In this document: positions 9,275 to 44,949 of the stretch, piece by piece | How the letters are laid out: every line of letters begins with the position of its first letter | How positions within the stretch are numbered: position 1 is the stretch's first letter | Virus record (IMG/VR): IMGVR_UViG_3300027509_000001 | Span: 64,001-128,000 of that record | From: a virus | Reading direction: 5' to 3' (one strand) | DNA length: 64,000 bases | Position numbers and translations under genes: made by a program | Notes under the pieces: generated by a model | Told to the model about the DNA's origin: nothing | Database searches by the model: none | What the model saw: the letters and a program-made list of their open reading frames with translations, nothing else

Positions 9275-9766
9275 TTAAAAATAAGTTATCTTAGTCTTTT
9301 TATTGCCTTCTACGTGAACAAATGTATTGCCGGATCCAGCTCGGTTTCCTTTTTGGACTTCCAATGCAACTGTTTTTCCGTCAGCCGATGTTCCAAATAT
9401 TGCTAATCCAAATTGCAATTTATTGCTTGCTCTGAAACCATTGCCCAATTGAATTATTGGTAATACATATATGTCTTTCCATTTTACATTTAACCTGCCA
9501 GAAATTGTTGCTAGGTTTTTTGTAGTTCTAGTAGAAAGTATACTTTGAGCCGCTGAATATTTTAGTTTATATCCTTTAGTTGTTTTTGGTCTCGCCGTTG
9601 GTGGAAATGGTATTGTAATAGATGGTAGTGAAGCTTCTAGTTCATCCCTTGCATCGCCGCCATTTTTTAATATTTCGGGAGTATACTTATTTCTAAGTTT
9701 TTGAAGTGCAGAAGTGCTTTCGTATAATCTTTCCTGCTTTACTTCGTTCCAAATTTTCTTGTCCAT
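9275..9766 (-). CDS. hypothetical protein with putative capsid-targeting leader (MDKKIWNEV)
   Basis: A 163-residue protein whose first nine residues, MDKKIWNEV, match the leader shared by the small-protein cluster at 34329-37973 (MNKKIWNEA/V). By analogy with T4 internal proteins, the predicted protease cut is after Glu8. The rest is basic and Pro/Thr-rich, with a beta-rich C-terminal half (LGNGFRASNKLQFGLAIFG, ADGKTVALEVQKGNRAGSG). The AAAAAAGGAATTTAAA sequence before ATG 9766 gives a Shine-Dalgarno-like AAGGA. It is the only such leader seen among the non-structural genes. It may be an internal head protein injected with DNA (inference). Confidence 0.65.
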   Translation of the reverse strand: MDKKIWNEVKQERLYESTSALQKLRNKYTPEILKNGGDARDELEASLPSITIPFPPTARPKTTKGYKLKYSAAQSILSTRTTKNLATISGRLNVKWKDIYVLPIIQLGNGFRASNKLQFGLAIFGTSADGKTVALEVQKGNRAGSGNTFVHVEGNKKTKITYF

Positions 9767-30432: not shown

Positions 30433-32862
30433 TTATCCTTGTGGATTACCTGTTTCATTACTATTTTCAACCGGGAATACTGCACCAGTAGGTAACACCA
30501 TAAAGTCAACAATTATAAATTCAGCTGTCTTAGCTGGTTTTAAGTATATTTGTGCTCGCATTTCATTTCTATCAATTACATCTGGAGTATTATTGTCCAT
30601 ATCAATTTTAATTCTGAAATCGTATATACCTTGCTTTCTTCTAGCATCCTCAAACCATGGTCGAGTTATGTTAATAAATCTTGTTCTTGTTTCTCTTGTA
30701 TTTTGCTCAAACACTAAATATTTAGAAGTTGTAGCTACATGTCTTTTTGCTGCAATTAACAATCTTCTTACATTAATTCTATCTAATGCAGATCTTTTCT
30801 TCTGTAAAGTTTTTTGTCCCCAAACAACTACGCCCTCTCTAGGAAAAGTTGCAATTGGATTTACATTCTTTCTATATAAACTATCTCTGTCATTTTGCGT
30901 CATGATTCTTTCAGTTTGTATAGCTAAGTCTAGCCCACCTCTATTTAAACCTGCTGGAGCATTCCATTTTTCTCCAACTGCATCATTAAAAGCAAATGCT
31001 CCTGTAATTACTGCTGATGGTGGCAACCAAACATTTTCACCTAAATCTGGGTCTTGTACTTGTATCCATGGGTAATATATACCAGCATGGTTTGAATTCC
31101 TTGCTTCTGCGGCTCTTTCTGCATCCCCTACTGATTTTCCAAATTCTGTTGGATCAATAATGTAAAATGCATCCCCTCTTTCTTCTACCATACTAATTGC
31201 CTGCGTGATAATTTTTGCATGGTCTGGTAATTGGTCAACTAGTCCAGGTGTAACTAACAAATCATAGTCAAATTCATCTTTATTAGAAAGCATGTCAATA
31301 GCATCTAAATAATTAGATTTACCATAATCATCAACTGAAAGATTTAATCCTTGAGTATTTGATTCCCAAATATTGTCATACATTGCTCTTGGATGCGCCA
31401 CGTTTCCGTCGCTACCAAATGCAAAGATGCCTTCTAAATTACTTGCAACGGTTCCTGATATATCAGTTATGTTCAAGAAATGATCTACATTTGTTGATTC
31501 TCCACTAGTAGTGGTTATCAATTGTACAACTGCCCCAGTTATGTCTTCGTCTGCGGAATTATCAGATACTACTAAATTAGTATCGTCTGCAATAGAAAGT
31601 ACTTGATAAACATGCGATGATATTGTAATAAAATCACCTGCAGTCAATTCGGTTGTAAATGCTGTTCCTGTGCCAACTACCGCGCCAGTCGCCTGTGTTA
31701 AAGCAACGGTTCCAGTGACAGCTGATGTGTCAAGTGAGCTTAATGCAGTTAAACCAGCTTCATTATAATTTCCAGCAAATGTAGAAGTAAATGCTCCAGG
31801 AAGTTTTGCTATCTGTGAATAATCTCTAACAAACCCGTCATTAGTTAAATAGTTTATAGTTTTTTTATGAACTTTACATCTAACAAATCTTGATCTATTT
31901 GGATATGTCCCTATTTTTTGTAAATATGGAACTCCACTTGAATCCGCTCTTAATGCATAATATTGATTTCCAATTACCTTTTCTATATAATTAGAAGCTC
32001 TTGGGTCTAAAGTTACTCCAGTAAATGATTCTAGTATTATTTTTCTAGTATTAGAATCGTCTCCTCTTCTAATGTATAAATCAAATGTTCCTCGCTTTGG
32101 ATCTACGTTTGCAACTTCCCATCTAATATTATATCGACTACCGTCTCTTAATTCTCCTGTACCCTCGATATCTCCAGTTGGATTACTAATTGCATTGTAT
32201 TCTGTAGAAAAACCTTTTAATGCAGATGTTTTATTACCTGAGTTTGCTGCTTCTCCGTCTGTTAATGTAATTAACTCGAAAGACATTTCATCTATTACAG
32301 ATTCAAAAGCTGTTGCCCAAGCGGCATCGAATAATACATCTACAATTTCATTTATTGCACTGAACTCTTCTGCTGTTAATGCATTGACGTCATCACTTAA
32401 CATTGTATCATAGTCTGCGCGAGTATGTGTAGTTGTATTTTCAGTATTATACTGAGTAATTGCATCGTCAATATAATCTTCTTTTTCTTGACCTGCTGGT
32501 GGAGTTGCACTTGAAGTGTCTCCAGCTTGTGATATTACAGTAGATTTTGCTGGAGAATATCTATTCCCCAAAATTCTAGTTACTGTACACATCTCTCCCC
32601 ATCTTAAATATTCTTGTACTGCATATGTTGTCATGTACTTGAATTCTTGCTCATTTCCATCTGATCCTGAAACGAATATGTCTCCAAACCATCTAGTATA
32701 TTCTCTATATGATGATACTGGCGTAGGAACTAATCCAGGCCCTCTTACTGTTGGACCAACAACTGCTAATCCTACCGCTGGAAACGGTTCAGTTAAAAAT
32801 GATAAATCGAATTCACGAGTGTACACACCTGCTGACAAGAAAGTATTCTTTACGTTTGGCAT
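30433..32862 (-). CDS. gp18: tail sheath protein, gp18-like
   Basis: Forms the contractile sheath. The N terminus SAGVYTREFDLS is typical of sheath proteins. The C-terminal 250 residues hold the conserved attachment core (AWRTHAPAGLNRG-type GEKWNAPAGLNRGGLD, DSLYRKNVNPIATF, GVVVWGQKTLQ, LDRINVRRLLIAAKRHVA, TAEFIIVDFMVLPTG). At 809 residues it is longer than T4 gp18 (659). The extra length lies in the middle, including a Thr/Val-rich beta insertion around residues 375-440 that may form a surface domain. AAAGGAAA precedes ATG 32862. Confidence 0.93.
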   Translation of the reverse strand: MPNVKNTFLSAGVYTREFDLSFLTEPFPAVGLAVVGPTVRGPGLVPTPVSSYREYTRWFGDIFVSGSDGNEQEFKYMTTYAVQEYLRWGEMCTVTRILGNRYSPAKSTVISQAGDTSSATPPAGQEKEDYIDDAITQYNTENTTTHTRADYDTMLSDDVNALTAEEFSAINEIVDVLFDAAWATAFESVIDEMSFELITLTDGEAANSGNKTSALKGFSTEYNAISNPTGDIEGTGELRDGSRYNIRWEVANVDPKRGTFDLYIRRGDDSNTRKIILESFTGVTLDPRASNYIEKVIGNQYYALRADSSGVPYLQKIGTYPNRSRFVRCKVHKKTINYLTNDGFVRDYSQIAKLPGAFTSTFAGNYNEAGLTALSSLDTSAVTGTVALTQATGAVVGTGTAFTTELTAGDFITISSHVYQVLSIADDTNLVVSDNSADEDITGAVVQLITTTSGESTNVDHFLNITDISGTVASNLEGIFAFGSDGNVAHPRAMYDNIWESNTQGLNLSVDDYGKSNYLDAIDMLSNKDEFDYDLLVTPGLVDQLPDHAKIITQAISMVEERGDAFYIIDPTEFGKSVGDAERAAEARNSNHAGIYYPWIQVQDPDLGENVWLPPSAVITGAFAFNDAVGEKWNAPAGLNRGGLDLAIQTERIMTQNDRDSLYRKNVNPIATFPREGVVVWGQKTLQKKRSALDRINVRRLLIAAKRHVATTSKYLVFEQNTRETRTRFINITRPWFEDARRKQGIYDFRIKIDMDNNTPDVIDRNEMRAQIYLKPAKTAEFIIVDFMVLPTGAVFPVENSNETGNPQG

Positions 32863-34328: not shown

Positions 34329-34547
34329 TTAGTTAAATCCAGATGCTACCTCGAACTTTGAGCCTTTATATTTAATTTTTACAATTAACTCTTCACCTTC
34401 GTCTAATAGATCTTCATTTTTTCGTACTTGATTGGCTACGAATTTTCCCAACTTATCAAAGTCAGAAAATTTACCTATATCCCAGAAACCTTCTGTAATA
34501 ATCTTTGATAGCCCAACCTTTGCTTCATTCCAAATTTTCTTATTCAT
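34329..34547 (-). CDS. small protein with capsid-targeting-like leader MNKKIWNEA
   Basis: A 72-residue protein. The leader MNKKIWNEA is shared nearly letter for letter with five other genes. Predicted cleavage after Glu8 would leave AKVGLSKIITEG... and a small helical/beta protein ending KYKGSKFEVASGFN. AAGGAATAAA precedes the ATG. It is the last member before gp14. Function of the mature part unknown. Confidence 0.7.
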   Translation of the reverse strand: MNKKIWNEAKVGLSKIITEGFWDIGKFSDFDKLGKFVANQVRKNEDLLDEGEELIVKIKYKGSKFEVASGFN

Positions 34548-34560
34548 TTTATTCCTTTAT
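34521..34560. repeat. 40-bp dispersed repeat covering RBS and leader codons
   Basis: Identical over 40 bp to 35018-35057; covers the ribosome binding site, ATG and the first nine codons (MNKKIWNEA). A 37-bp near copy is at 37949-37985. Confidence 0.95.
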
Positions 34561-34578
34561 ATTTTTCATAGTGATTCC

Positions 34579-34836
34579 TTAAAATATGTTTCTTACTGCA
34601 TATGCTATTAAATCCCATGACGCAACCTCAACTGTCAATTTCTTTTCATCTACATGAACAGTATTGGTCTTCAAAGCTCGTTTAACCCATGCTTCTACTT
34701 TCTTCGGGTTATTCTTTGCTTCTGATCCTACGTTTATCGTCACGTATTTTCCATCAACTTTAAATGAGCTATTTTCATTTAATGATTTTGCGACCGCTTC
34801 GTGTATTATATTCTTTAATTGCATATTATTATCCAT
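34579..34836 (-). CDS. small protein with leader-like N terminus (LKNIIHEA)
   Basis: An 85-residue protein beginning MDNNMQLKNIIHEAVAKSL. The sequence IIHE-A could be a cleavage site of the same type as ILNE-A in its neighbours. The mature part is basic (SEAKNNPKKVEAWVKRALKT) with short strands. Its ATG lies 4 nt after a TATTTATAAAC element, and it overlaps the next gene upstream by 8 bp. Function unknown. Confidence 0.6.
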   Translation of the reverse strand: MDNNMQLKNIIHEAVAKSLNENSSFKVDGKYVTINVGSEAKNNPKKVEAWVKRALKTNTVHVDEKKLTVEVASWDLIAYAVRNIF

Positions 34837-35044
34837 GTTTGTTTATAAATAAATCTACTTTAACTTCGATGTAATCGACTATGTCCTTTTCATCGAATCC
34901 TTCGCTTTCAAATGTTTTAAATATCCCTTTAATTGAATTGTCAAGGCCTGCCAAATCTTTACTGCTGACCATTCCATTCATTCTACTAATAACATTCATC
35001 GAAACTTCTGTAGTTAATGCTTCATTCCAAATTTTCTTATTCAT
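34829..35044 (-). CDS. small protein with capsid-targeting-like leader MNKKIWNEA
   Basis: A 71-residue protein with the MNKKIWNEA leader followed by LTTEVSMNVISRMNGMVSSK and an acidic helical C terminus (FDEKDIVDYIEVKVDLFINK). It shares a 40-bp identical start region with the 34329-34547 gene. It overlaps the downstream gene by 8 bp. Mature function unknown. Confidence 0.68.
   Translation of the reverse strand: MNKKIWNEALTTEVSMNVISRMNGMVSSKDLAGLDNSIKGIFKTFESEGFDEKDIVDYIEVKVDLFINKHG
34841..34851 (-). promoter_or_regulatory. TATTTATAAAC element
   Basis: Same 11-nt motif as at 28671-28681 and 58777-58787, only 4 nt before ATG 34836 and partly inside the upstream gene end. If it is a -10 box the transcript would be nearly leaderless. 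Confidence 0.3.
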
Positions 35045-35057
35045 TTTATTCCTTTAT
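35018..35057. repeat. 40-bp dispersed repeat covering RBS and leader codons
   Basis: Second identical copy of 34521-34560. Both copies encode MNKKIWNEA with the same upstream AAAGGAATAAA. Confidence 0.95.
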
Positions 35058-35266
35058 TTTCTAAAATTCCAAGTCACTTCTGTTTTCATTTCAATTAAGC
35101 GATCTCTTATGGTTCTAAGTTCATTTTCTATCTTTCTATCCTCTTTACTGCTAGTTAATGAAAATGGCGCTTGTCTGTGAGCTGCGGAGAGGGCCTTTAT
35201 TGCTTCATTGATTTTTTGAATTGGATATGGTTCTGCTGCTTCGTTTAAAATGTCTATTAATTTCAT
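35054..35266 (-). CDS. small protein with capsid-targeting-like leader MKLIDILNEA
   Basis: A 70-residue protein. The MKLIDILNEA leader is shared with the next upstream gene (MKLIDILNES) and matches the presumed cleavage site in the major capsid protein (QILNE-A). The mature part AEPYPIQKINEAIKALSAAH and the following charged helices suggest a small helical protein. Function unknown. Confidence 0.68.
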   Translation of the reverse strand: MKLIDILNEAAEPYPIQKINEAIKALSAAHRQAPFSLTSSKEDRKIENELRTIRDRLIEMKTEVTWNFRK

Positions 35267-35275
35267 TATTTATTC

Positions 35276-35563
35276 CTATTTTTTTTCAAATCTATCAGCA
35301 TTTACGCTAAATGAATCTGTATTTTTGTTTCCACCTTTTGGATACACTCTTGCGTTTGACCCATAATAGTTTTGAAATATATATATTTCACTCTCAGAGT
35401 TTCTTGTTAGATATGGAAGACTAGATCCATAATGTTCTTTTCCAGTAGATCTCATTTTTTTAATTTCAGCCCGAGTTGCTTTATTGAATACTAATTCAGT
35501 ACCTGGCTCATAATCATATTTATGTTCATTAATACTTTCGTTTAAAATATCTATTAATTTCAT
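35276..35563 (-). CDS. small protein with capsid-targeting-like leader MKLIDILNES
   Basis: A 95-residue protein. The MKLIDILNES leader is followed by a basic, Tyr/Ser-rich beta-type domain (ELVFNKATRAEIKKMRSTGK, SEIYIFQNYYGSNARVYPKG). It lies 3 nt after gp13. Basic character fits packaging with DNA. Function unknown. Confidence 0.68.
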   Translation of the reverse strand: MKLIDILNESINEHKYDYEPGTELVFNKATRAEIKKMRSTGKEHYGSSLPYLTRNSESEIYIFQNYYGSNARVYPKGGNKNTDSFSVNADRFEKK

Positions 35564-35566
35564 AAT

Positions 35567-36721
35567 TTACTTTATATACATTTTCATTGGTACTCCAGCC
35601 AAATGCTGTTCTAAATATTCAGCTTCTGCTGCTTTCTTTTCGAGTTGGGCTTTTGAACCAAATGAGTCTAAAAATTCTTTTATTTCTTCAATTAACGATT
35701 CTTGTTCTGCGGCTGCCTGTGTTAACAGATCGTCCGAATTCAATGTTATTTCTGTATCGGGAATTGGTATTTGCGAATATTTGCCCCGTACAAAACCTAA
35801 CATCTCTTTACAAAGTGCTAAGGCATATCTTTGCATCCAATTTCTAGCGATTGAATTCGTTGCACTATATTTTAAATTATCATATGGTATATTGCTAATA
35901 TCAGAAATCAATGATTCGCTTTGGTCAATATTAATATCTTCTGATTCTAATGTGTAATCGAAGTATATTTTTGTTGCATGAGTTGGAACTGGAAAAATTC
36001 GTATTTTATCTCCAGTTAATTTAAAACCATAATGACTTTTTCTTATCTGATCGTTTAATTCAACCGCTTGAATTCGTTGCACATCACTATTTAATGGCGT
36101 CAATAAGTAATCAGAACCTACTCCATTCATTCCAAATTCATCTATTAGAGCTTGATTGGTGCCTGCGCCTGCTGCTTGGGTTATATATCTACTTGAGGCT
36201 GGACTTGGAGAATGATATACTTTTCTTATTGTAAATTCGTCAGATGTTGGATCACCAAGTTCTAATTCAGTATCTGTGTCATCAGTTAAATTATAAACTT
36301 GCTTACCAGCTGTGGTGTTTATAAATCCCTGATATTGATTTTGGGAACCGCCTGATGGAGCTGCTACTCCATATTGTTCTGCTACTTTAAAAACCCCAGA
36401 TAAACTTGCCTGTACATAATTACCTGTAAAGTTTAAAGCTCCAATTGGAGACCCTTGAACGTCCATTAGTAGATCTCTCGCTGCATACATATGAAGATAA
36501 TATCCATACTTCATAACAGACTCTTCATAAGCTGCATAAAAATTATCAGATATCAATTCTACATCAACTATTGGATATCCTAATCTTCTAGCTGCCCACT
36601 TGGAAAACTTATCTATGTCAGTTGCAAAATCACCGTCAGCGTCAAAATGCCCATATGGTGTTTCTCCAGCTGCGAATGTACTTGATCCTGTCCATGTATT
36701 TATTACTGGTTCATCTGCCAT
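35567..36721 (-). CDS. gp13: neck protein, gp13-like
   Basis: A 384-residue head-completion protein. The N-terminal half has FSKWAARRLGYPIVDVELIS, then DNFYAAYEESVMKYGYYLHM, comparable to the T4 gp13 start (YP...VEL...Y.AFEEAV). RIFPVPTHATKIYFDYTLES and NWMQRYALALCKEMLGFVRG follow further on. It is longer than T4 gp13 (309). Position next to the gp14- and gp15-like genes supports the call, although small leader-bearing genes separate them. Confidence 0.85.
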   Translation of the reverse strand: MADEPVINTWTGSSTFAAGETPYGHFDADGDFATDIDKFSKWAARRLGYPIVDVELISDNFYAAYEESVMKYGYYLHMYAARDLLMDVQGSPIGALNFTGNYVQASLSGVFKVAEQYGVAAPSGGSQNQYQGFINTTAGKQVYNLTDDTDTELELGDPTSDEFTIRKVYHSPSPASSRYITQAAGAGTNQALIDEFGMNGVGSDYLLTPLNSDVQRIQAVELNDQIRKSHYGFKLTGDKIRIFPVPTHATKIYFDYTLESEDINIDQSESLISDISNIPYDNLKYSATNSIARNWMQRYALALCKEMLGFVRGKYSQIPIPDTEITLNSDDLLTQAAAEQESLIEEIKEFLDSFGSKAQLEKKAAEAEYLEQHLAGVPMKMYIK

Positions 36722-37086
36722 TAGTAGTTTAACCTAATTTCAATCTTTTTAATTGCCACCTGTGTTTTTTCAATTGACATGTTTACTTTGTTTAGTTTTT
36801 CGCCGTAATTATTTGCATCGTTGTCTGTCCATTCTAAACCCTTTTGACCAGATTCTGAGTCCATATCTGAGAATATTTCTCTTTTTTCTATATATAAGTT
36901 TTTTAGTTGGCGTTGCATGTTCCACAAGTTGTTTTCTAAAGACTCCCTCTGTTTACCATACACTCTTTTCTTAAGGTTGGAATTCGATTGAGATTTTAAT
37001 TTATCATGGACCATTTGTCTGGCGCGAACCCTTATAAGGACAGGGTCATTTGCATGTAAAGCTTCGTTCCAAATTTGTCTGTTCAT
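36721..37086 (-). CDS. small coiled-coil protein with leader MNRQIWNEA
   Basis: A 121-residue protein. The MNRQIWNEA leader is a variant of MNKKIWNEA. The rest is highly charged and helical (LENNLWNMQRQLKNLYIEKR and a second helix near the end), predicting a coiled-coil hairpin. The stop overlaps the gp13 ATG by 1 nt. Function unknown. Confidence 0.68.
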   Translation of the reverse strand: MNRQIWNEALHANDPVLIRVRARQMVHDKLKSQSNSNLKKRVYGKQRESLENNLWNMQRQLKNLYIEKREIFSDMDSESGQKGLEWTDNDANNYGEKLNKVNMSIEKTQVAIKKIEIRLNY

Positions 37087-37398
37087 TTAGCCCATATCCT
37101 TCATGTCCTCTTCAACTTCCATCATATTATTTAATACTTTATCAATAGTAACATCAAAGTCTCTACCAGATTGCTTAGTAAGTAAATTTCTTACGATTCT
37201 ATAACAATTTTCAGTATCATTAGTAAACATTTTATATTTACCTGTTTCTCTAGATAATGTACGTAAATCACTTTCAGCACTTTCTAAAGTCTTTTGAATT
37301 TTCTCTAAAGATTTAATCCATGTTTGTAATGTCGAAAGTTTAAGATCGTTGCGCTCATTTAATCTTTGAGCTGCTTCTTTTAATTCTATTAATTTCAT
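37087..37398 (-). CDS. small helical protein with leader-like start MKLIELKEA
   Basis: From ATG 37398 the product begins MKLIELKEA, related to MKLIDILNEA. A 103-residue, mainly helical acidic/basic protein follows (LSTLQTWIKSLEKIQKTLES, VEEDMKDMG end). The frame is open to 37416, but ATG 37398 aligns with the leader family. It ends 1 nt before the next gene. Function unknown. Confidence 0.62.
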   Translation of the reverse strand: MKLIELKEAAQRLNERNDLKLSTLQTWIKSLEKIQKTLESAESDLRTLSRETGKYKMFTNDTENCYRIVRNLLTKQSGRDFDVTIDKVLNNMMEVEEDMKDMG

Positions 37399-37399
37399 T

Positions 37400-37645
37400 T
37401 TAAGTCCTTTTTCCATGATCCCACAATAAAGTAGAAATTATATCTAATAATTTTTTATCTGAAGGAGATGATTTAACATTCATGATTCCAGATCCGCCTA
37501 CTGTGAAACTGGCTATTTGTTTTGTTCCCTCATAAAACCCACCTTCGTTTGTGTTAACGTCTACTTTCATTACATACTTTCCTAATTTAGTATTCTGAAC
37601 GTTTTCGCTATCTTTTAAGGCTTGATTCCATATCTTACTATTCAT
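37400..37645 (-). CDS. small protein with leader MNSKIWNQA
   Basis: From ATG 37645 (with AAAAGGAAAAATAAA upstream) the product begins MNSKIWNQA, a leader variant in which the Glu of the presumed cleavage site is Gln, so it may not be cut. The 81-residue protein has a Gly-rich beta-type middle (NEGGFYEGTKQIASFTVGGS). FYEGT also occurs as FYKGT in the neighbouring 37659-37973 product, suggesting related mature domains. Confidence 0.65.
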   Translation of the reverse strand: MNSKIWNQALKDSENVQNTKLGKYVMKVDVNTNEGGFYEGTKQIASFTVGGSGIMNVKSSPSDKKLLDIISTLLWDHGKRT

Positions 37646-37658
37646 TTTATTTTTCCTT

Positions 37659-37973
37659 TTATAATTTAAATGCAATATAGGAATCGTCTCCGTCTCCGTT
37701 TAATTCATCCCAGAAATATTCTGCTGCTTCTTCTGGGGTGTCGTAATCTTCAATTGAACCATCTTTAGTAACCTTTCGGATAACCATTTGTTTTAATTGC
37801 TTACCAGTTCCTTTATAAAATTCTTCTTGGCCCTGATATTTGCTAATAAATAGCATATACTTAGTTCCGTCTTTAAGGTCTTTCCATTGGTAATTTTTAT
37901 CATTCAATGATTGCATTGATTCTAATATTACATTTGATTCGTTTAGAACTTCATTCCAAATTTTCTTATTCAT
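37659..37973 (-). CDS. small acidic protein with leader MNKKIWNEV
   Basis: A 104-residue protein. The MNKKIWNEV leader is followed by LNESNVILESMQSLNDKNYQ, then WKDLKDGTKYMLFISKYQGQ and a very acidic end (AAEYFWDELNGDGDDSYIAF). The acidic, compact character is reminiscent of DNA-mimic or inhibitor proteins, but this is only an impression. Good Shine-Dalgarno AAAGGAAA. Confidence 0.68.
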   Translation of the reverse strand: MNKKIWNEVLNESNVILESMQSLNDKNYQWKDLKDGTKYMLFISKYQGQEEFYKGTGKQLKQMVIRKVTKDGSIEDYDTPEEAAEYFWDELNGDGDDSYIAFKL

Positions 37974-37985
37974 TTTATTTCCTTT
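37949..37985. repeat. near copy of the 40-bp leader repeat
   Basis: 37 bp almost identical to 34521-34560 and 35018-35057, again covering RBS, ATG and leader codons. Confidence 0.85.
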
Positions 37986-38314
37986 TAAATATCTTTAAAT
38001 TCAATATTAGCTAATTTTTCAGTTTTTTTAAGAGCTTCATATGCTGATTTCCATGGGGACTCTTTTTCATTGTGATCGAAAAATATTCCAAACTGATTTA
38101 TTGGTCTTGCATTTGCTTTTCTAGCTTCGTGATCTGCATATATAAATACAAACGCCACATTTTCATTAGTCGTCTCAATAACAGTTTCTTGATGCCCGTC
38201 CGGTCTATCTATTAATTTATCATCATCTGACCTAGCTAATGTTATTTTTTTGATTCGATAGTATGCATTTTCTATGATATCATTTTGAAATGTATAATTT
38301 GCTATTATTGCCAT
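37985..38314 (-). CDS. hypothetical (probable virion) protein
   Basis: A 109-residue protein (MAIIANYTFQNDIIENAYYR, then IKKITLARSDDD...) without the cluster leader. The alternating hydrophobic pattern and NVAFVFIYADHEARKANARP suggest a beta-sandwich, as in small head or tail decoration proteins. Function unknown. Confidence 0.55.
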   Translation of the reverse strand: MAIIANYTFQNDIIENAYYRIKKITLARSDDDKLIDRPDGHQETVIETTNENVAFVFIYADHEARKANARPINQFGIFFDHNEKESPWKSAYEALKKTEKLANIEFKDI

Positions 38315-38408
38315 ATTAAAATATTAGATTTAACGTAATTTAAATTAGATGTAAGCGACTTTATGTCGTTATGTATATAAGTATGCCAGATGATTTAAAT
38401 TGCTTAAA

Positions 38409-38639
38409 TTAAATGCTTCTTTGCAAGTCCTTTAATATCATCCTATATATTGTGTTTTGATCACTTTGGGAAACATCTTCTATGTTTAGGCCTGCATCAT
38501 CCAGTGCCGTTTCCCAATTATCGTCTATAAGATTATAAATACTTATCGAATCTACAATAGTTTTCATTTCAGCCTTAGATAATTTGCCCGGTTGCGATTC
38601 GTTTATACCAGCTATTTTTAATTGTTGCTCGTTTAACAT
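38409..38639 (-). CDS. small acidic protein with leader MLNEQQLKIAGINES
   Basis: From ATG 38639 (AAAGGAAATAAA upstream) the 76-residue product begins MLNEQQLKIAGINES. The motif LKIAGINES resembles both the leaders of the neighbouring genes (INE-S) and the scaffold C terminus (MKIAGITPLNG). The mature part is acidic and helical (LIDDNWETALDDAGLNIEDV). The open frame reaches 38711, but the leader family supports 38639. Function unknown. Confidence 0.62.
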   Translation of the reverse strand: MLNEQQLKIAGINESQPGKLSKAEMKTIVDSISIYNLIDDNWETALDDAGLNIEDVSQSDQNTIYRMILKDLQRSI

Positions 38640-38671: not shown

Positions 38672-40180
38672 TTAAATATTCATTTCGTATTTTAAACTTC
38701 CGCAATCCCAAATTCTATCATAACCCAAATTTAACATGTTCTGATATTCAGTTAATTCTTTATTTGCAGTTGGAAATTTTTGTAAAATATTTGACTTAGT
38801 AAAATTAAATCTATGCCGTCTAGTTTTATGATCTAATATATACCAATAATTTGGAGCTCCATCTGATATTTTAGTAAATCCTATCTGTTCATATAAATTT
38901 CCATTACTATATCTTCTATCAGCATACGAGATGATTTTTTCTGGAGAGTAACAACGAATAAAATAGTTTAATAATTTTGATGCTCCTCCGATTACACTAC
39001 AATTTATCTTATTACAAAATCTTAATAATTCCCATTGAGGATTGTTCGATCCAGTAATTTTTCTTTTAGTAAAATTCATAACTGAAACTAATTCATTATT
39101 ATAATACAATCCAATGTGAACTTTTGCTCCAATACTGCCCTGTAAATGATTTAATTTTAAGAATTGCATGGAATCTTTAGAGTTAAGCAATTTAATTTGA
39201 CATTTCCTAGCATATATTCTAGTCTTTACGTCTCCTAGCATCGAATCAATTCTGGACAAAACTATATTTTTATGGTTTAACCATTCATCCTCAAATATAT
39301 GAATCAATTGTATATTATTTTTAATTGCAAGATTTGTTTTGTCCAAATGGTAATTTTTATGTTTTCCAGATCCTTCTTTGTGCCAATATAAACCATTATA
39401 TTCAATCGCAATATTTTTTATAGGAATATAAAGATCGAATTCAGTTCCTAATTTTCTATAATTTGGAATTACTTCTAGATTTTTTCTAGATATATAAGAT
39501 TCAAGTTCTAATTCTGGTTTTGATCTCCATGTGTTTTTTTGCAATTCAATATTTTCATGCCATAACTTACTTAATTTATCACTGGTTTTATTTGACACTA
39601 TTGGCCCATATAATTCTTTATAAGTAGCCTGTGTCATATTATGCTTCTTAAGATGACTATTCGTTATAGTTTTAAGTCGGTCTCCACAAATTTGACATTC
39701 AACTCCACCAGATTCTGTATTAATTAATGACGTTCTCGTTGATTCTCTATTATGCATTACGTATAATGGTTTGAATTCTGGAAAATTAGAAATTATATCA
39801 GTTACAGATTTTCCATGTTTCTTTTTACAATGAGATGTAAACATTCCTGATTTATTATTGACGTCAATTGTTGTCCAGTTACAATATGGGCATTTAATAG
39901 TTGGTCTCGTATCTTTTGGTTTATCGATAATTTCCCAGTCATCCCAATTCAATTCGTAACCTAAAACATTTCTGCTATATTTTCCTAGAGCCCCGGATTT
40001 ATTTAAAATGTCTGTAGAAGTTTTTCCTGTCGCAACATGTTTAATTAATTTATCTTTGGGGTTTTTAATATTAGATTGGCGTTTGGCGTTTAATTCTTTG
40101 TCATTGAATTTACATTCATTCGAACAATAGTATTTACCAGTTTTTAAAATTTCATTTCCACAAATTTTACAAATTTTCAT
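38672..40180 (-). CDS. free-standing homing endonuclease, Vsr-like/EDxHD type with zinc fingers
   Basis: A 502-residue protein. The N-terminal half has three Cys/His zinc-finger-like blocks (KICKICGNEI with YCSNEC; CPYCNWTT with HCKKKHG; CQICGDR with HLKKHNM) for DNA binding. The nuclease core is SKPELELESYIS, then GTEFDLYIPIKNIAIEYNGL directly followed by YWH, then HIFEDEW, fitting the Glu-Asp-x-His-Asp arrangement. A C-terminal domain of about 170 residues (GLYYNNELVSVMNFTKR, ISYADRRYSNGNLYEQIGF) looks GNAT-like. It lies between the capsid gene and the small-protein cluster, typical of a gene-to-gene homing element. Confidence 0.85.
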   Translation of the reverse strand: MKICKICGNEILKTGKYYCSNECKFNDKELNAKRQSNIKNPKDKLIKHVATGKTSTDILNKSGALGKYSRNVLGYELNWDDWEIIDKPKDTRPTIKCPYCNWTTIDVNNKSGMFTSHCKKKHGKSVTDIISNFPEFKPLYVMHNRESTRTSLINTESGGVECQICGDRLKTITNSHLKKHNMTQATYKELYGPIVSNKTSDKLSKLWHENIELQKNTWRSKPELELESYISRKNLEVIPNYRKLGTEFDLYIPIKNIAIEYNGLYWHKEGSGKHKNYHLDKTNLAIKNNIQLIHIFEDEWLNHKNIVLSRIDSMLGDVKTRIYARKCQIKLLNSKDSMQFLKLNHLQGSIGAKVHIGLYYNNELVSVMNFTKRKITGSNNPQWELLRFCNKINCSVIGGASKLLNYFIRCYSPEKIISYADRRYSNGNLYEQIGFTKISDGAPNYWYILDHKTRRHRFNFTKSNILQKFPTANKELTEYQNMLNLGYDRIWDCGSLKYEMNI

Positions 40181-40315: not shown

Positions 40316-41944
40316 TTATACTGTATCCAAACCGTCAATTTGAATAGTACCATAAAATTCAGGTCTTAATATCTTCTTAGCATATCTTGTCATTACGCCT
40401 TTACGTGGTGTAAAGTTGTCTGGATCAAGTACTAGAGGAGTCGTAATCAATGGAATATATGGAGCATATACTGCACCTGTTTCCAAATACTCAGAACCTC
40501 TGTATCCCATAAGAATTAAATTCTCTGTCATGTAAGGATTTTTATAAACAGTAAATCTGTTATTTAAAGCCCCTACCTTTCTAACACCCATTGCAAATTG
40601 TGACTTGTCACCATCTGTACTAGCTGCATAACCAGGAATTGATTCAATGATTGTAGCTACTTCTGGGCTAGTTACCATAAAGTTTGCACCACCTCTCATT
40701 GTCAATTTGTTAATTTGATTCGATACACTTTGCAATTTAGTACCTAACGTTTGGAACCATGTTCCTTGGTTATAAGCACTTGCATTTGCAGAAGTTTGTG
40801 AGAATTGTTTTGTCCCTGCATCATATTCAAAACCAATTTTTGCAGACCATCTGTTTGTAGTTTGCGCATTAGTAATTAACATGTCCAATAATTCAAAATC
40901 AATTTCCTGAGAAATATATTCACCTAACATTGCAGTTAATTCTGCTTCTGCATCAATTGAATGATATGCATTAATGTCTTGGCTAAATTCTGGAGTCCAG
41001 ATTGCTTTTAACTTTCTTGTCTTAGCAACAATAGTCTCTTGTCTCATTTGTAGATCTAAAGTAGGAATATCTAACGGATCTTCTCCAGTCTTTCCTTCTT
41101 CAAAATCACCTCTAGTAATATCTGTTGGTTGCTTGTGATAAGCTACGGTTGGAGTAGCTGCTGCCATGTTAGTAGCATTTGTTCCACTTTCTCCTACAAT
41201 AATAAATGTAATCTCAGTTTGGTCAGATGATACTCTAGTATACTGGCTCAATTGAGTTTTAATTAATGGATCTGTGATTGTAAACGCTCTTACACCTTCT
41301 AGGTCTGGAGTAGTTAAGTCTGCTACTGGAACAACTACTTTAAGTACTCTATCTGCGGTAATATCTGCGTCTAATAACGCTAATACTTCACTGTTGTATT
41401 GTAAATCAAATTCTTTAGTTGCTTGAACTGAAGTCGCTGAATCTACACTTGCTACAACATCTACATCGTTTACTGAATATCCAAATCTACCAACACCATA
41501 TAATCCACCAGTACCAACTGCATCTCCACGTCTTGCGTCTGTAACACCAAATACACTATCTTCTTGAGAGTCTCTAGCTGAGCCTGTTTTATAACCTGCT
41601 TGTCCAGTTGCGTATTTATGTTCTAGCCAGAATACTAAACCGTTAGGTAAGTTCATTGGTTGAGTAGAAACAAATTCTTTAGAAGATATACTTGAAAAGA
41701 TTCTTCTAATTAATGGTAATGCAATTCCTGCCCACTCTTCTGCGCCTTTTTCAGTTGAAGTTGAGTTTGCTTCATTTAAAATTTGACCTGCTTGATTTTC
41801 TAACAAGCGAGCCAATTGATTTGCTTCTGATTCATTTAAACCAGTTAACAATTTAGTTGGTGCCCATTTTTCTACCAACCTTTTCATTTCCGCTGCTCTA
41901 TCTGCTCTTTTATTTGCAGTCGGGAATAATGATTTAACGTTCAT
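40316..41944 (-). CDS. gp23: major capsid protein, gp23-like
   Basis: A 542-residue T4-type capsid protein. The N-terminal prodomain (about 58 residues) ends in AGQILNE-ANSTS, matching the expected prohead protease cut (T4 gp23 is cut after residue 65). The mature part has GIALPLIRRIFSSISSKEFV, HKYATGQAG, and RKLKAIWTPEFSQDINAYHS, followed by ELTAMLGEYISQEIDFELLD, then GVMTRYAKKILRPEFYGTIQ near the end. AAGGAAAATAAAC precedes ATG 41944, and a strong terminator follows. Confidence 0.95.
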   Translation of the reverse strand: MNVKSLFPTANKRADRAAEMKRLVEKWAPTKLLTGLNESEANQLARLLENQAGQILNEANSTSTEKGAEEWAGIALPLIRRIFSSISSKEFVSTQPMNLPNGLVFWLEHKYATGQAGYKTGSARDSQEDSVFGVTDARRGDAVGTGGLYGVGRFGYSVNDVDVVASVDSATSVQATKEFDLQYNSEVLALLDADITADRVLKVVVPVADLTTPDLEGVRAFTITDPLIKTQLSQYTRVSSDQTEITFIIVGESGTNATNMAAATPTVAYHKQPTDITRGDFEEGKTGEDPLDIPTLDLQMRQETIVAKTRKLKAIWTPEFSQDINAYHSIDAEAELTAMLGEYISQEIDFELLDMLITNAQTTNRWSAKIGFEYDAGTKQFSQTSANASAYNQGTWFQTLGTKLQSVSNQINKLTMRGGANFMVTSPEVATIIESIPGYAASTDGDKSQFAMGVRKVGALNNRFTVYKNPYMTENLILMGYRGSEYLETGAVYAPYIPLITTPLVLDPDNFTPRKGVMTRYAKKILRPEFYGTIQIDGLDTV

Positions 41945-41987: not shown

Positions 41988-42932
41988 TTATCCATTCAAT
42001 GGTGTAATACCAGCAATTTTCATCATTCTTTCTGAAACAATGTCTTTAACTGGGTCGGCTGTTTTAGCTCCAATGGCTTTTATATCCTGTGAAGCAGTTT
42101 CTGCTAATCTAGCTTTTGCTTTTGATCCAGAATTTTGTAATGTTTCTGCGATTGTTGCATATACTAATTTAGCATCTTTAACAGTAGAAGTTCTGTCAAA
42201 CGCTTCTAAAACTTTAAGTTTTGCTGATTCGCTTAATTCAAAATTCTTAATCAATTTATGTGAATACATTAATTTTGCATTTAGCAAGTTAACTTCCCCA
42301 TTAGTTTCTCTAAGAGTTTGAATTGCTTTATAAGCTTCTTTAAGGTCTGCTGTCATTTTCTCATTTGCTCTACTTTCGTTAGACTGAATGATTTGATAAG
42401 CTTCTTTAAGGTCTGCTTTTAATTCCGCAATTTCTTTTTTCATGTCTTCTTCAGTTTCATCCTCAACACTTTCATCAACATCTTCGCCTTTTTTCTTAGC
42501 GATTGCTTTTTTAAGTGCTGGTGGTAATTCACCTTCTTGCATGTCTTCTTCGTCTTCCATTTCCATTTCTTTAGTAACTTCAGAAATAATTTCATCTAAA
42601 TCGCTTTCAGTAATCTCTTTATCATCGTCCTTTAAATCGGATTCTAATTCAGCAATTACAGCTTCTAGATTTAAATCATCTTCATCTTCAGAAGATTCTT
42701 CTTTTAATTTTTCATCGTCACATCCCTCACCTTCTTTCATGTCACTTGCTGGAGTTGCGTCTTTACCGTCGTCCATATAGTCTTCGTCAGCCGCTTCTGT
42801 TGCTAGTTTTGCTTCGATCATTGTTTTAATCGTTGGTTGAAATGTTTCGTTGATTGTATCCATTGCATTTTTGTAAGCTGTTTCTTTTAAAAGTTTAGCT
42901 TCTGCAATAACATCTTTCAATAAGTTGTCCAT
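41988..42932 (-). CDS. gp22: prohead scaffold/core protein, gp22-like
   Basis: A 314-residue, very acidic, coiled-coil-rich protein placed immediately before the capsid gene, as T4 gp22. It starts MDNLLKDVIAEAKLL, has long Glu/Asp runs at residues about 50-170 and a helical C-terminal third ending ERMMKIAGITPLNG. Several I/L-x-E sites (VIAE-A, AVIAE-L) would allow degradation by the gp21-type protease. AAAGGAC lies upstream of ATG 42932. Confidence 0.88.
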   Translation of the reverse strand: MDNLLKDVIAEAKLLKETAYKNAMDTINETFQPTIKTMIEAKLATEAADEDYMDDGKDATPASDMKEGEGCDDEKLKEESSEDEDDLNLEAVIAELESDLKDDDKEITESDLDEIISEVTKEMEMEDEEDMQEGELPPALKKAIAKKKGEDVDESVEDETEEDMKKEIAELKADLKEAYQIIQSNESRANEKMTADLKEAYKAIQTLRETNGEVNLLNAKLMYSHKLIKNFELSESAKLKVLEAFDRTSTVKDAKLVYATIAETLQNSGSKAKARLAETASQDIKAIGAKTADPVKDIVSERMMKIAGITPLNG

Positions 42933-43342: not shown

Positions 43343-44305
43343 TTATTTTTTTGTTAAAATGGCATTAATCGTTGTCATTATAGTTTGATAGTATCTAACT
43401 AGATTTCGAAAGTGGTAATCGATTTGTTTGCCATCATTATAATCTTTTATTGCGCTCGATAATTCATCTACTACGTTAATATATGTTGGAAGTAATTCTT
43501 TAGGACCTTTGCTCCAAGAAAAAAGTTCTGGGTTATCTAGCATATATTTAAAAGCCTTATCAGTTTGTGCCTTAAGGTTATGAACTTTTACAACATATTT
43601 TGCCAACTTAGGATCCATTTTACCTTTCCTCTTTTCTTTCTTCATTTGAGCAATTTTTTTGGCATAATTCAAATGCTTATCTCTTAAAATATCCCAATCA
43701 CTTCTTACAGAGTTTGCAAAATCTTTATTGTGCTCTTTAGAGACATTAACATCAGAATTTGATTTTATAACATACGCCGTGTATTTATTGGACATTAAAT
43801 CAGAATTTTTAATAACTGAAATCGATGATATTCCTGTTTTATTTGATTTTGCATTGCCTCTTCCAGTACTTACGTATACGTTATTCTGCTTTCCTATGCT
43901 TTTTCCTTTAGATGTACCATAACTATGCCTCGAACCAGACATATGGACATGCTTTCCACCTCTCATTATTCCCGCTATTTCTTTGTATCGTTCATCAACA
44001 AAAATGACCACATCTAATTTATTTTGAGTCATATGACTCTTGGCCTTGTCGCCTGGAATTATTAATATCATATCATCAGTTACATCCGATGATTTAATGC
44101 CCAATTTCGAGAGTCCATTGAACATATTAAATGCAGATCTTCGGTTCCAACCAGAATTTGCATCATTAGATGTATATACGTTGTATTTAGATATTTTTTG
44201 CATTTTAGATGATTTAAATGCTTCCTTTATTAAATACCTATTAATTGCTTCTTTTACAATTCTTTTAACTTGTGGTTTTGTATACGTTTTCATTTGCATT
44301 TGCAT
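43343..44305 (-). CDS. hypothetical head-operon protein
   Basis: A 320-residue basic protein between protease and bS21 genes. ATG 44305 overlaps the protease stop (TAATG), arguing for this start; the frame is open to 44338, and ATGs at 44299 and 44293 are alternatives. The N terminus (YTKPQVKRIVKEAINRYLIK, then EAF) is amphipathic helix. The middle contains DVVIFVDERYKEIAGIMRGG, then a Gly/Ser/Lys-rich segment with GSRHSYGTSKGKSIGKQ. The end is helical. It may be a prohead core or packaged protein; no family is recognised. Confidence 0.6.
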   Translation of the reverse strand: MQMQMKTYTKPQVKRIVKEAINRYLIKEAFKSSKMQKISKYNVYTSNDANSGWNRRSAFNMFNGLSKLGIKSSDVTDDMILIIPGDKAKSHMTQNKLDVVIFVDERYKEIAGIMRGGKHVHMSGSRHSYGTSKGKSIGKQNNVYVSTGRGNAKSNKTGISSISVIKNSDLMSNKYTAYVIKSNSDVNVSKEHNKDFANSVRSDWDILRDKHLNYAKKIAQMKKEKRKGKMDPKLAKYVVKVHNLKAQTDKAFKYMLDNPELFSWSKGPKELLPTYINVVDELSSAIKDYNDGKQIDYHFRNLVRYYQTIMTTINAILTKK

Positions 44306-44949
44306 TATTTTAAACAACAATTTCCTGCCAATTCGCAAATAATATCTCTAATTATTATTTCAGCATATTGTTCTTGTGTTAATTCATTTTTATTGACCGA
44401 TTCGCTTATAGGAGCTAAGAATGCTTGATGTGTAGATGGATTAGAAACAAAATCCCAACAAACCAAATTATAATCTTCTGATACTGCGACTGTTTCTTCG
44501 TCTACTTGTGTTACCGATCCCATTCCCCTTGAACTTATACCAACTGTCAAACCAGCTAATATTAATTCCTTTAATATATTTCCAGAAGGCGTATTCAATA
44601 TTTCGACAGTTCCAACAACATCATTTCCTTCCCACCATATTTTTCTTATTACGTGCGATACGTTTCTGAAATTTACTACACTTGAATCTGGATGATCTAA
44701 TTCTCCATATGCTCTATTTTCTGCTATAAAAACCTTTTCATAGTTTTTAACTTCTCTTTCTAAAATATTTCTTGGATAAATTCGTTTATTTTGATTCTTA
44801 GCTTCAGCTCTTTGTAATACTCCAGTTACTAATAAACTACCACCATTCTTTTTGATAGATTCTTCTAGCCTAGTTCTGACTTGTGATGGATTTAAACCCT
44901 TTATTTCATTAATAAGAAATGGCTGAGATGTTAATATTGGTTGTTTCAT
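44305..44949 (-). CDS. gp21: prohead protease, gp21-like
   Basis: This serine protease of the herpesvirus-assemblin fold matures the prohead by cutting scaffold, capsid and internal proteins after short I/L-x-Glu motifs. The 214-residue protein has KRIYPRNILEREV, the catalytic His in GELDHPDS (His86), then GISSRGMGSV with Ser140, and a DYNLVCWDFVSNPSTHQAFL motif. It starts 1 nt after the 144-residue gene. Its target sites are visible in this window: ILNE-A in the capsid protein and the NE-A/S/V leaders of the small proteins. Confidence 0.92.
   Translation of the reverse strand: MKQPILTSQPFLINEIKGLNPSQVRTRLEESIKKNGGSLLVTGVLQRAEAKNQNKRIYPRNILEREVKNYEKVFIAENRAYGELDHPDSSVVNFRNVSHVIRKIWWEGNDVVGTVEILNTPSGNILKELILAGLTVGISSRGMGSVTQVDEETVAVSEDYNLVCWDFVSNPSTHQAFLAPISESVNKNELTQEQYAEIIIRDIICELAGNCCLK

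What the first reader, a model, noticed from the sequence alone, without database searches (positions are those of the whole stretch)
34329..38639. A cluster of small proteins with shared cleavable-looking leaders: a likely set of packaged, injected proteins
Seen: ten small genes begin with one of a few short leaders: MNKKIWNEA/V and its variants, MKLIDILNEA/S and a variant, LKNIIHEA, and LKIAGINES. The leaders end in a Glu before a small residue. The sequence after the leader is different in each gene. An eleventh (MDKKIWNEV) lies at 9275-9766. Known: T4 internal proteins carry about 10-residue capsid-targeting sequences cut by gp21 after I/L-x-Glu, and T4 IPI is injected to block a host restriction enzyme. 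Inference: this phage loads about eleven different proteins into its head, so the cluster could be an anti-defence arsenal.
Basis: partly seen in the sequence, partly recalled or inferred. Interest (0 to 1): 0.9.

Follow-up and report, generated by a model that had tools for sequence, protein, structure and literature searches.

The report
Phage head-cargo proteins with address labels
A large uncultured phage seems to tag about 18 otherwise unrelated proteins with short removable address labels that send them inside its own head, probably to be injected into the host with the DNA, and related phages do the same with different labels, so such proteins can be read from sequence alone.

Summary
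In detail: ten small minus-strand genes at 34329-38639, plus one at 9275-9766, begin with a few short shared leaders and carry unrelated bodies. The 188.5-kb contig holds about 18 leader genes in all. The best explanation is a T4-type capsid-targeting system. The contig encodes a gp21-type prohead protease (37% identical to T4 gp21, catalytic His and Ser kept), and the capsid protein's own cleavage column reads ILNE|A, the same letters as the leader MKLIDILNE|A. Two refinements. (1) Most leaders carry a second I/L/V-x-E site at residues 11-20 (14 of 19, against 34 of 226 other small genes), which fits T4 gp21 better than WNE|A. (2) MLNEQQLKIAGINE|S resembles the scaffold's conserved C-terminal motif (RMxKIAGI) with a cut site added; in 21 of 21 N-terminal cases elsewhere RMQKLAGI is followed directly by IxE. 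Relatives use other leaders: a kinase related to one cargo has 53 of 53 Glu at P1 and 53 of 53 Leu/Ile at P3 behind variable leaders. Packaging and cleavage were not shown here; the anti-defence role is untested. In phage CBB the bare motif did not predict virion proteins.

The parts
34329..34547 (-). leader gene, 72 aa: MNKKIWNE|AKVGLSKIITE|GFWD...; candidate leader codons 34491-34547
34579..34836 (-). leader gene, 81 aa from the ATG at 34824: MQLKNIIHE|AVAKSLNE|N...
34829..35044 (-). leader gene, 71 aa: MNKKIWNE|ALTTE...; no clear second site; leader DNA and 16 of 18 upstream bases shared with the gene at 34547
35054..35266 (-). leader gene, 70 aa: MKLIDILNE|AAEPYPIQKINE|A...
35276..35563 (-). 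leader gene, 95 aa: MKLIDILNE|SINE|H...
36721..37086 (-). leader gene, 121 aa: MNRQIWNE|ALHAND...; no second site
37087..37398 (-). leader gene, 103 aa: MKLIELKE|AAQRLNE|R...
37400..37645 (-). leader gene, 81 aa: MNSKIWNQALKDSEN...; Gln at the cut position, so no Glu to cut there
37659..37973 (-). leader gene, 104 aa: MNKKIWNE|VLNE|SNVILE|S...
   Evidence: low-confidence model
38409..38639 (-). leader gene, 76 aa: MLNEQQLKIAGINE|SQPG..., leader resembling the scaffold C-terminus
9275..9766 (-). leader gene, 163 aa: MDKKIWNE|VKQERLYE|STSA...
   Evidence: no relative in annotated phages
44305..44949 (-). gp21-type prohead protease; His (GELDHP) and Ser (GISSRG) kept; own N-terminus has FLINE|I
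   Evidence: phrog_207 1.4e-56; 37% identical to T4 gp21; PDB 5jbl
40316..41944 (-). gp23-type major capsid protein; predicted propeptide residues 1-58 (41771-41944) ending QILNE|A
   Evidence: phrog_138 1.7e-68; alignment with about 100 relatives
41988..42932 (-). scaffold (gp22-like); N-terminus LLKDVIAE|A, C-terminus ..RMMKIAGITPLNG (41988-42029)
   Evidence: position, composition and conserved C-terminal motif; no PHROG hit
43343..44338 (-). gene next to the protease, probable prohead-core protein; likely start at 44293, MKTYTKPQVKRIVKEAINRYLIKE|AFKSS, a type C-like leader
35567..36721 (-). gp13-like neck protein inside the cluster, no leader
   Evidence: phrog_211 6e-13

Best explanation
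The leaders are capsid-targeting sequences of a T4-type head. Each small protein is made with an 8-21 residue N-terminal address that docks it onto the scaffold core of the prohead. During maturation the phage's gp21 protease cuts after I/L-x-Glu, frees the body inside the shell, and the freed proteins stay with the packaged DNA, most likely to leave with it into the next host cell. The phage uses at least three address types: MNKKIWNE[AV]...LxE, MKLIDILNE, and one resembling the scaffold's own C-terminus, LKIAGI plus NE. Shown here: the leaders, their restriction to the N-terminus, unrelated bodies, the protease, the matching capsid site, the scaffold motif, and leader replacement on a conserved cargo in relatives. 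Inferred: docking, cutting, packaging and injection. My estimates: targeting to the prohead with gp21 processing 0.83; presence in mature virions 0.75; injection of most of them 0.6; mainly anti-defence 0.35.
For: Protease present with its catalytic residues. The capsid cleavage column is I/L/V-x-E followed by A or S in nearly all of about 100 relatives, and this phage's ILNE|A equals its leader ILNE|A. Second I/L/V-x-E site at residues 11-20 in 14 of 19 leader proteins, against 34 of 226 other small genes (p=1.2e-7; the site rule was chosen after seeing the leaders) and 6.6% of internal windows. Peptide-level conservation. Scaffold C-terminal motif RMxKLAGI found C-terminal 80 times and N-terminal 21 times of 106, and all 21 N-terminal copies run straight into IIxE. 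A kinase related to one leader protein (contig 31026-31715): P1 Glu 53/53, P3 Leu/Ile 53/53, P2 nine different residues, leader identity 25% against 69% for the body. In relatives the genes just after gp21 often start MIKLxxLLxE or with type C leaders. T4 precedent: CTSs of 10-19 residues, core affinity, gp21 removal, varied cargo (PMC9026906; PMC3012670; T4 sequences).
Against: No virion data for this phage. WNE|A has Trp, not Ile/Leu, at P3, and three type A members (starts 35044, 37086, 37645) lack a consensus site; one has Gln at P1. The exact MN-K-x-IWNE DNA pattern occurs in no other IMG/VR contig, so the main leader type cannot be tested by comparison. In phage CBB, a gp21/gp23 phage with published virion MS, the bare motif I/L/V-x-E near the N-terminus did not mark virion proteins (7/31 against 40/127, p=0.39): the motif alone is weak and only shared leaders carry weight. 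The scaffold gene was identified by position and motif, not by a family hit.
Confidence: 0.83

Rival explanations
1. The proteins do go into the prohead core and are cut, but they are morphogenetic core or filler proteins (head size, DNA condensation), not injected effectors.
For: T4 IPIII affects head assembly and copurifies with gp22 (PMC9026906). In relatives similar leaders sit on genes between gp21 and the scaffold. Ten genes lie in the capsid-neck region.
Against: Bodies are mutually unrelated and three searched window bodies have no relative in annotated phages, unlike core morphogenesis genes. A related leader-bearing cargo is a zeta-toxin-like kinase, an enzyme. Three type A genes lie in the tRNA cluster far from the head genes.
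Confidence: 0.3
2. The leaders are docking tags to some other partner (polymerase, tail, membrane) or degrons; the Glu motif is incidental.
For: Short N-terminal tags can serve many ends; one member lacks the Glu (start 37645), and the bare motif is not predictive in CBB.
Against: A Glu at the leader/body border with L/I at P3 is invariant in 53 kinase relatives while the leader changes; the scaffold-type leader always ends in IxE; the capsid site has the same letters.
Confidence: 0.08
3. A 5' DNA or RNA element (translation enhancer, promoter, recombination cassette) is conserved, and the peptide is a by-product.
For: Two neighbouring genes share the leader DNA and 16 of 18 upstream bases, as after a recent cassette copy; early AT-rich codons favour translation.
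Against: Synonymous changes are common within the leader while residues 5, 6 and 8 hardly change; upstream DNA is otherwise not conserved; different peptides serve in relatives.
Confidence: 0.04
4. The genes are fast-evolving paralogues of one family that only look unrelated; the leader is the remnant of a shared domain.
For: In Atu_ph07 ten tandem genes with a common leader M[KR]W..L[TN]E share similar bodies in part. A leader and a family can coincide.
Against: No body-to-body similarity below E=0.1 here, lengths 70-229 aa, no Pfam match above cut-off in the window cargos.
Confidence: 0.07

Closest known systems
T4 internal proteins IPI, IPII, IPIII with capsid-targeting sequence (CTS)
   Same: Short N-terminal leader shared by proteins with different bodies; (I/L)-x-Glu cut by gp21; leader lengths 10-19 (IPI MKTFKEFTSTTTPVSTITE|A, IPII and IPIII MKTYQEFIAE|A); T4 ipI lies beside a tRNA cluster (PMC9026906).
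   Different: About 18 genes instead of a handful; several address types in one genome; one address resembles the scaffold C-terminus; PHROGs scans tied no window cargo to a known internal-protein family.
T4 Alt and other head-packaged ADP-ribosyltransferases
   Same: Enzyme cargo with a gp21-removed N-terminal propeptide (PMC9026906). Packaging of phage ARTs has been inferred from gene context (PMC9503650).
   Different: No ART found among the leader genes here; Atu_ph07 gp53-62, with M[KR]W..L[TN]E leaders, look ART-like by my reading of the sequence (not searched).
Inner-head/ejection proteins of phiKZ and SPN3US
   Same: Many head proteins cleaved after Glu by a prohead protease, including ejected ones (PMC5694885, PMC7411985: abstracts only; PMC9026906 figure legend).
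   Different: Those phages have diverged proteases and capsids; here protease and capsid are T4-type.
Phage P1 DarA/Hdf head-associated antirestriction proteins
   Same: Head-associated proteins that act against restriction (PMC12810830, abstract only).
   Different: Few, larger proteins; no small leader family known to me.

Membership tests
T4 capsid-targeting sequence (CTS) proteins | short N-terminal leader shared by proteins with unrelated bodies | tested here: met
T4 capsid-targeting sequence (CTS) proteins | phage encodes a gp21-type prohead protease with catalytic His and Ser | tested here: met
T4 capsid-targeting sequence (CTS) proteins | gp21 consensus I/L-x-Glu at the leader end | tested here: inconclusive
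   present in most members as a second site (14/19 with I/L/V); the first site of type A is W-N-E; three type A members lack the consensus
T4 capsid-targeting sequence (CTS) proteins | leader binds the gp22 core and is enough for packaging | not testable with these tools
   indirect: one leader type resembles the scaffold C-terminal motif
T4 capsid-targeting sequence (CTS) proteins | mature protein present in the virion head, leader removed | not testable with these tools
   needs virion mass spectrometry
T4 capsid-targeting sequence (CTS) proteins | injected into the host | not testable with these tools
   needs infection experiments
T4 IPI (GmrSD restriction inhibitor) family | sequence relation of the body to IPI | not tested
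   no direct comparison made; PHROGs scan of ten window cargos gave no functional family
anti-defence proteins | match to a known anti-defence family | tested here: inconclusive
   Pfam and PADLOC scans of the window cargos gave no credible hit; PADLOC models mostly describe defence, not anti-defence, so the test is weak

The most novel reading that the evidence does not exclude
Removable head-address leaders are a general, sequence-readable code for the internal cargo of gp21/gp23-type phages. Each lineage has its own dialects, some derived from the scaffold's own C-terminus with a protease site added. The widespread marine leader MKITxxQLxxIIxE, on many small proteins of phages of up to 290 kb, is one dialect, so the head-loaded and probably injected proteome of uncultured phages can be listed from genomes.
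Probability: 0.55. Interest if true: 0.85.

Novelty: new variant of a known kind. Interest (0 to 1): 0.72.

Why it matters
Injected proteins are the first phage products to meet host defences, yet outside T4 they are known mostly from virion proteomics of a few phages. A leader code readable from sequence would turn many 'hypothetical' small genes of uncultured phages into candidate head cargo. The scaffold-like leader suggests a simple way that cargo could be recruited: copy a docking motif of the scaffold and append the maturation protease's cut site. Both are directly testable in cultured relatives (Flavobacterium phage immuto, Pelagibacter phage HTVC008M).

Tried and rejected
Same leader elsewhere: exact MN-K-x-IWNE DNA pattern, 0 hits in IMG/VR. 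Near DNA relatives in annotated phages: none. Cargo identification: PHROGs, Pfam and PADLOC gave only sub-threshold hits for the window cargos (the PADLOC HORMA hit of 6e-5 to the protein at 37087 covers 30 residues of a coiled-coil-like stretch and was not believed); three cargos had no tblastn hit in annotated phages. Single-sequence AlphaFold2 models of two cargos had mean pLDDT 43-45 and were not used. Virion data as a test: in phage CBB (Table 4 of PMC5259590) the bare I/L/V-x-E motif did not predict MS-detected proteins (7/31 against 40/127). For Atu_ph07 the list of MS-detected proteins is in a supplement I could not read; only the regional statement (29 products of CDS 31-76 found in virions, PMC6102473) was available. 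Chance, 5' DNA element and paralogy were considered and rejected as main explanations. The literature library prints none of the leader strings searched, but it holds only open-licence papers, and it does not print the T4 strings either.
Full report
Setting. The window is bases 64001-128000 of a 188.5-kb IMG/VR virus contig. It carries a T4-type head region on the minus strand: gp21-type protease (44305-44949), scaffold-like gene (41988-42932), gp23-type capsid protein (40316-41944), a homing endonuclease (38672-40180), the leader cluster, a gp13-like neck gene inside it, and a gp15-like gene after it. The closest named relatives by capsid protein are Microcystis phage Mel-JY01 (55%), Flavobacterium phage immuto (51%) and Rhodothermus phage RM378 (34%).

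Observation. All eleven leader genes exist as described. Scanning the rest of the contig adds five MNKKIWNE-type genes and two or three of the MKL/MSL type, about 18 in all. The four-residue string IW[NK][EQ] is found 9 times at residue 5 of called genes and once elsewhere in 54,784 positions. Leader codons vary synonymously while the peptide holds (93 synonymous, 107 non-synonymous pair differences, against 16 and 465 in codons 21-29). The bodies show no similarity to each other.

Protease and site. The protease is 37% identical to T4 gp21 over 163 residues and matches the solved T4 protease 5jbl, in which two residues that differ (GELNAP, GVASRG) lie where this protein keeps GELDHP and GISSRG. 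That these are the catalytic His and Ser, changed in the crystal construct, is from my knowledge. In the capsid protein the propeptide ends ...QILNE|ANSTS at residue 58; the same column reads I/L/V-x-E followed by A, S or rarely another residue in nearly all of about 100 relatives, RM378 being the exception. This phage alone in that set has Asn at P2, and Asn is also P2 in most of its leaders and in the protease's own FLINE. With one phage this is suggestive only; an AT-rich genome favours Asn.

Where is the cut? Most leader proteins have a second I/L/V-x-E with Glu at residue 11-20: MNKKIWNEALNE|S, MNKKIWNEAKRLNE|S, MDKKIWNEVKQERLYE|S, MNKQIWKEAKVKLKE|S, MKLIELKEAAQRLNE|R and others; 14 of 19 against 34 of 226 other small genes. 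The rule was formed after looking at the leaders, so the p-value of 1.2e-7 is optimistic. T4 offers both patterns: IPII and IPIII are cut at residue 10, IPI at residue 19 (sequences; propeptides of 10-19 residues, PMC9026906). Either or both sites may be used. The WNQ member lacks Glu; in T4 a change at that residue blocks cutting but not targeting (PMC9026906), so it may be carried uncut.

Scaffold-like leader. The scaffold of this phage ends RMMKIAGITPLNG, and scaffolds of relatives end R[FM]xKLAGI(IK). The leader MLNEQQLKIAGINE|S carries the same core. A pattern search for MQKLAGII in IMG/VR, without any condition on position, gave 106 distinct cases: 80 at the C-terminus, 21 at the N-terminus, 5 other. 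All 21 N-terminal cases read MQKLAGII-x-E, that is, the docking motif followed by a gp21 site; the listed C-terminal ones end just after LAGII. The simplest reading is that cargo is recruited by wearing the scaffold's end with a cut site added.

Leader replacement. One leader gene outside the window (contig 31026-31715) encodes a zeta-toxin-like P-loop kinase (PF06414, 5.5e-12). Of this kinase and its relatives, 53 distinct ones have a readable border: P1 is Glu in 53, P3 is Leu or Ile in 53, P2 takes nine residues, the leader has 8 to 20 residues in 51 cases, and leader identity is 25% where the body is 69%. The border was found from the conserved start G[VLI]YD, so the Glu was not assumed. 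The homologue in Agrobacterium phage Atu_ph07 is fused in a 778-aa protein with leader MKWNDLNE; the next nine genes share M[KR]W..L[TN]E or close variants. They lie in CDS 31-76, of which 29 products were found in virions (PMC6102473), but I could not read which ones.

Spread. In relatives the genes directly after gp21 often start MIKLxxLLxE or with a longer type, MKxxxxLRxIIREE...LxE. A strict pattern of the latter, MKITxxQLxxIIxE, fills the 120-stretch limit of a scan. With the ATG left out of the pattern, 171 of 174 distinct matches still have a start codon just before the Lys (the pool includes loci from the first, ATG-bound scan, which inflates the figure). All 17 contigs of at least 120 kb that carry it also hold a gp21-type protease. 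Among control contigs picked by a signal-peptide-like pattern the rate was 3 of 20, and 1 of 3 above 120 kb, so the size-matched control is thin. That this leader type is a head address is inference.

A negative test. Phage CBB has gp21, gp23 and a published virion proteome (PMC5259590, Table 4). In 158 of its proteins the bare motif near the N-terminus did not separate MS-detected from other proteins (7/31 and 40/127). The motif is too common alone, and CBB showed no obvious shared leader family in the part I read. The claim rests on shared leaders, not on the motif.

Function. Nothing here shows what the cargos do. No window cargo has a convincing family match, and the two structure models were too poor to use. 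Anti-defence is a reasonable guess from T4 IPI (PMC3012670), as are host takeover (as for Alt) and head morphogenesis (as for IPIII). I put anti-defence as the main role at about 0.35.

Known or new. That T4-like phages use a CTS to load varied proteins has been proposed (PMC9026906; PMC3012670). New here, as far as the searched literature shows, are the size of the set, several address types in one phage, the scaffold-like address, the invariant border on a conserved cargo under changing leaders, and the likely spread of such leaders among uncultured phages. I class it as a new variant of a known kind.

Noticed in passing
IMG/VR contigs, e.g. L224, L200, L194, L184: N-terminal leader MKITxxQLxxIIxE on many small, different proteins, up to seven within 3 kb, in large phages with gp21-type protease.
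   Followed up: partly
contig positions 31026-31715 (L003:12026-12715, minus strand): Zeta-toxin-like kinase with a leader ending in LKE|GVYD; the Glu border is invariant in 53 distinct sequences.
   Followed up: yes
L655 (Agrobacterium phage Atu_ph07 gp53-gp62): Ten tandem genes with leader M[KR]W..L[TN]E or close variants; several bodies look like ADP-ribosyltransferases (my reading, not searched), one fused to the kinase.
   Followed up: partly
L092 (LR756508, 484-kb uncultured phage): About 17 proteins near the capsid genes start M[KR]LxExKLRxIIxEE, plus a second group M[KRQ]LK..L.E.
   Followed up: no
L007:6088-11887 (contig 152088-157887): Cluster of 19 tRNA genes with three MNKKIWNE-type leader genes among them and a fourth just beyond, as T4 ipI lies beside its tRNAs.
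   Followed up: partly
window 38672-40180: Homing endonuclease (phrog_3339, 1.4e-105) between the capsid gene and the leader cluster.
   Followed up: no
window 37985-38314: 109-aa gene within the leader cluster without a leader and without a PHROG match.
   Followed up: no
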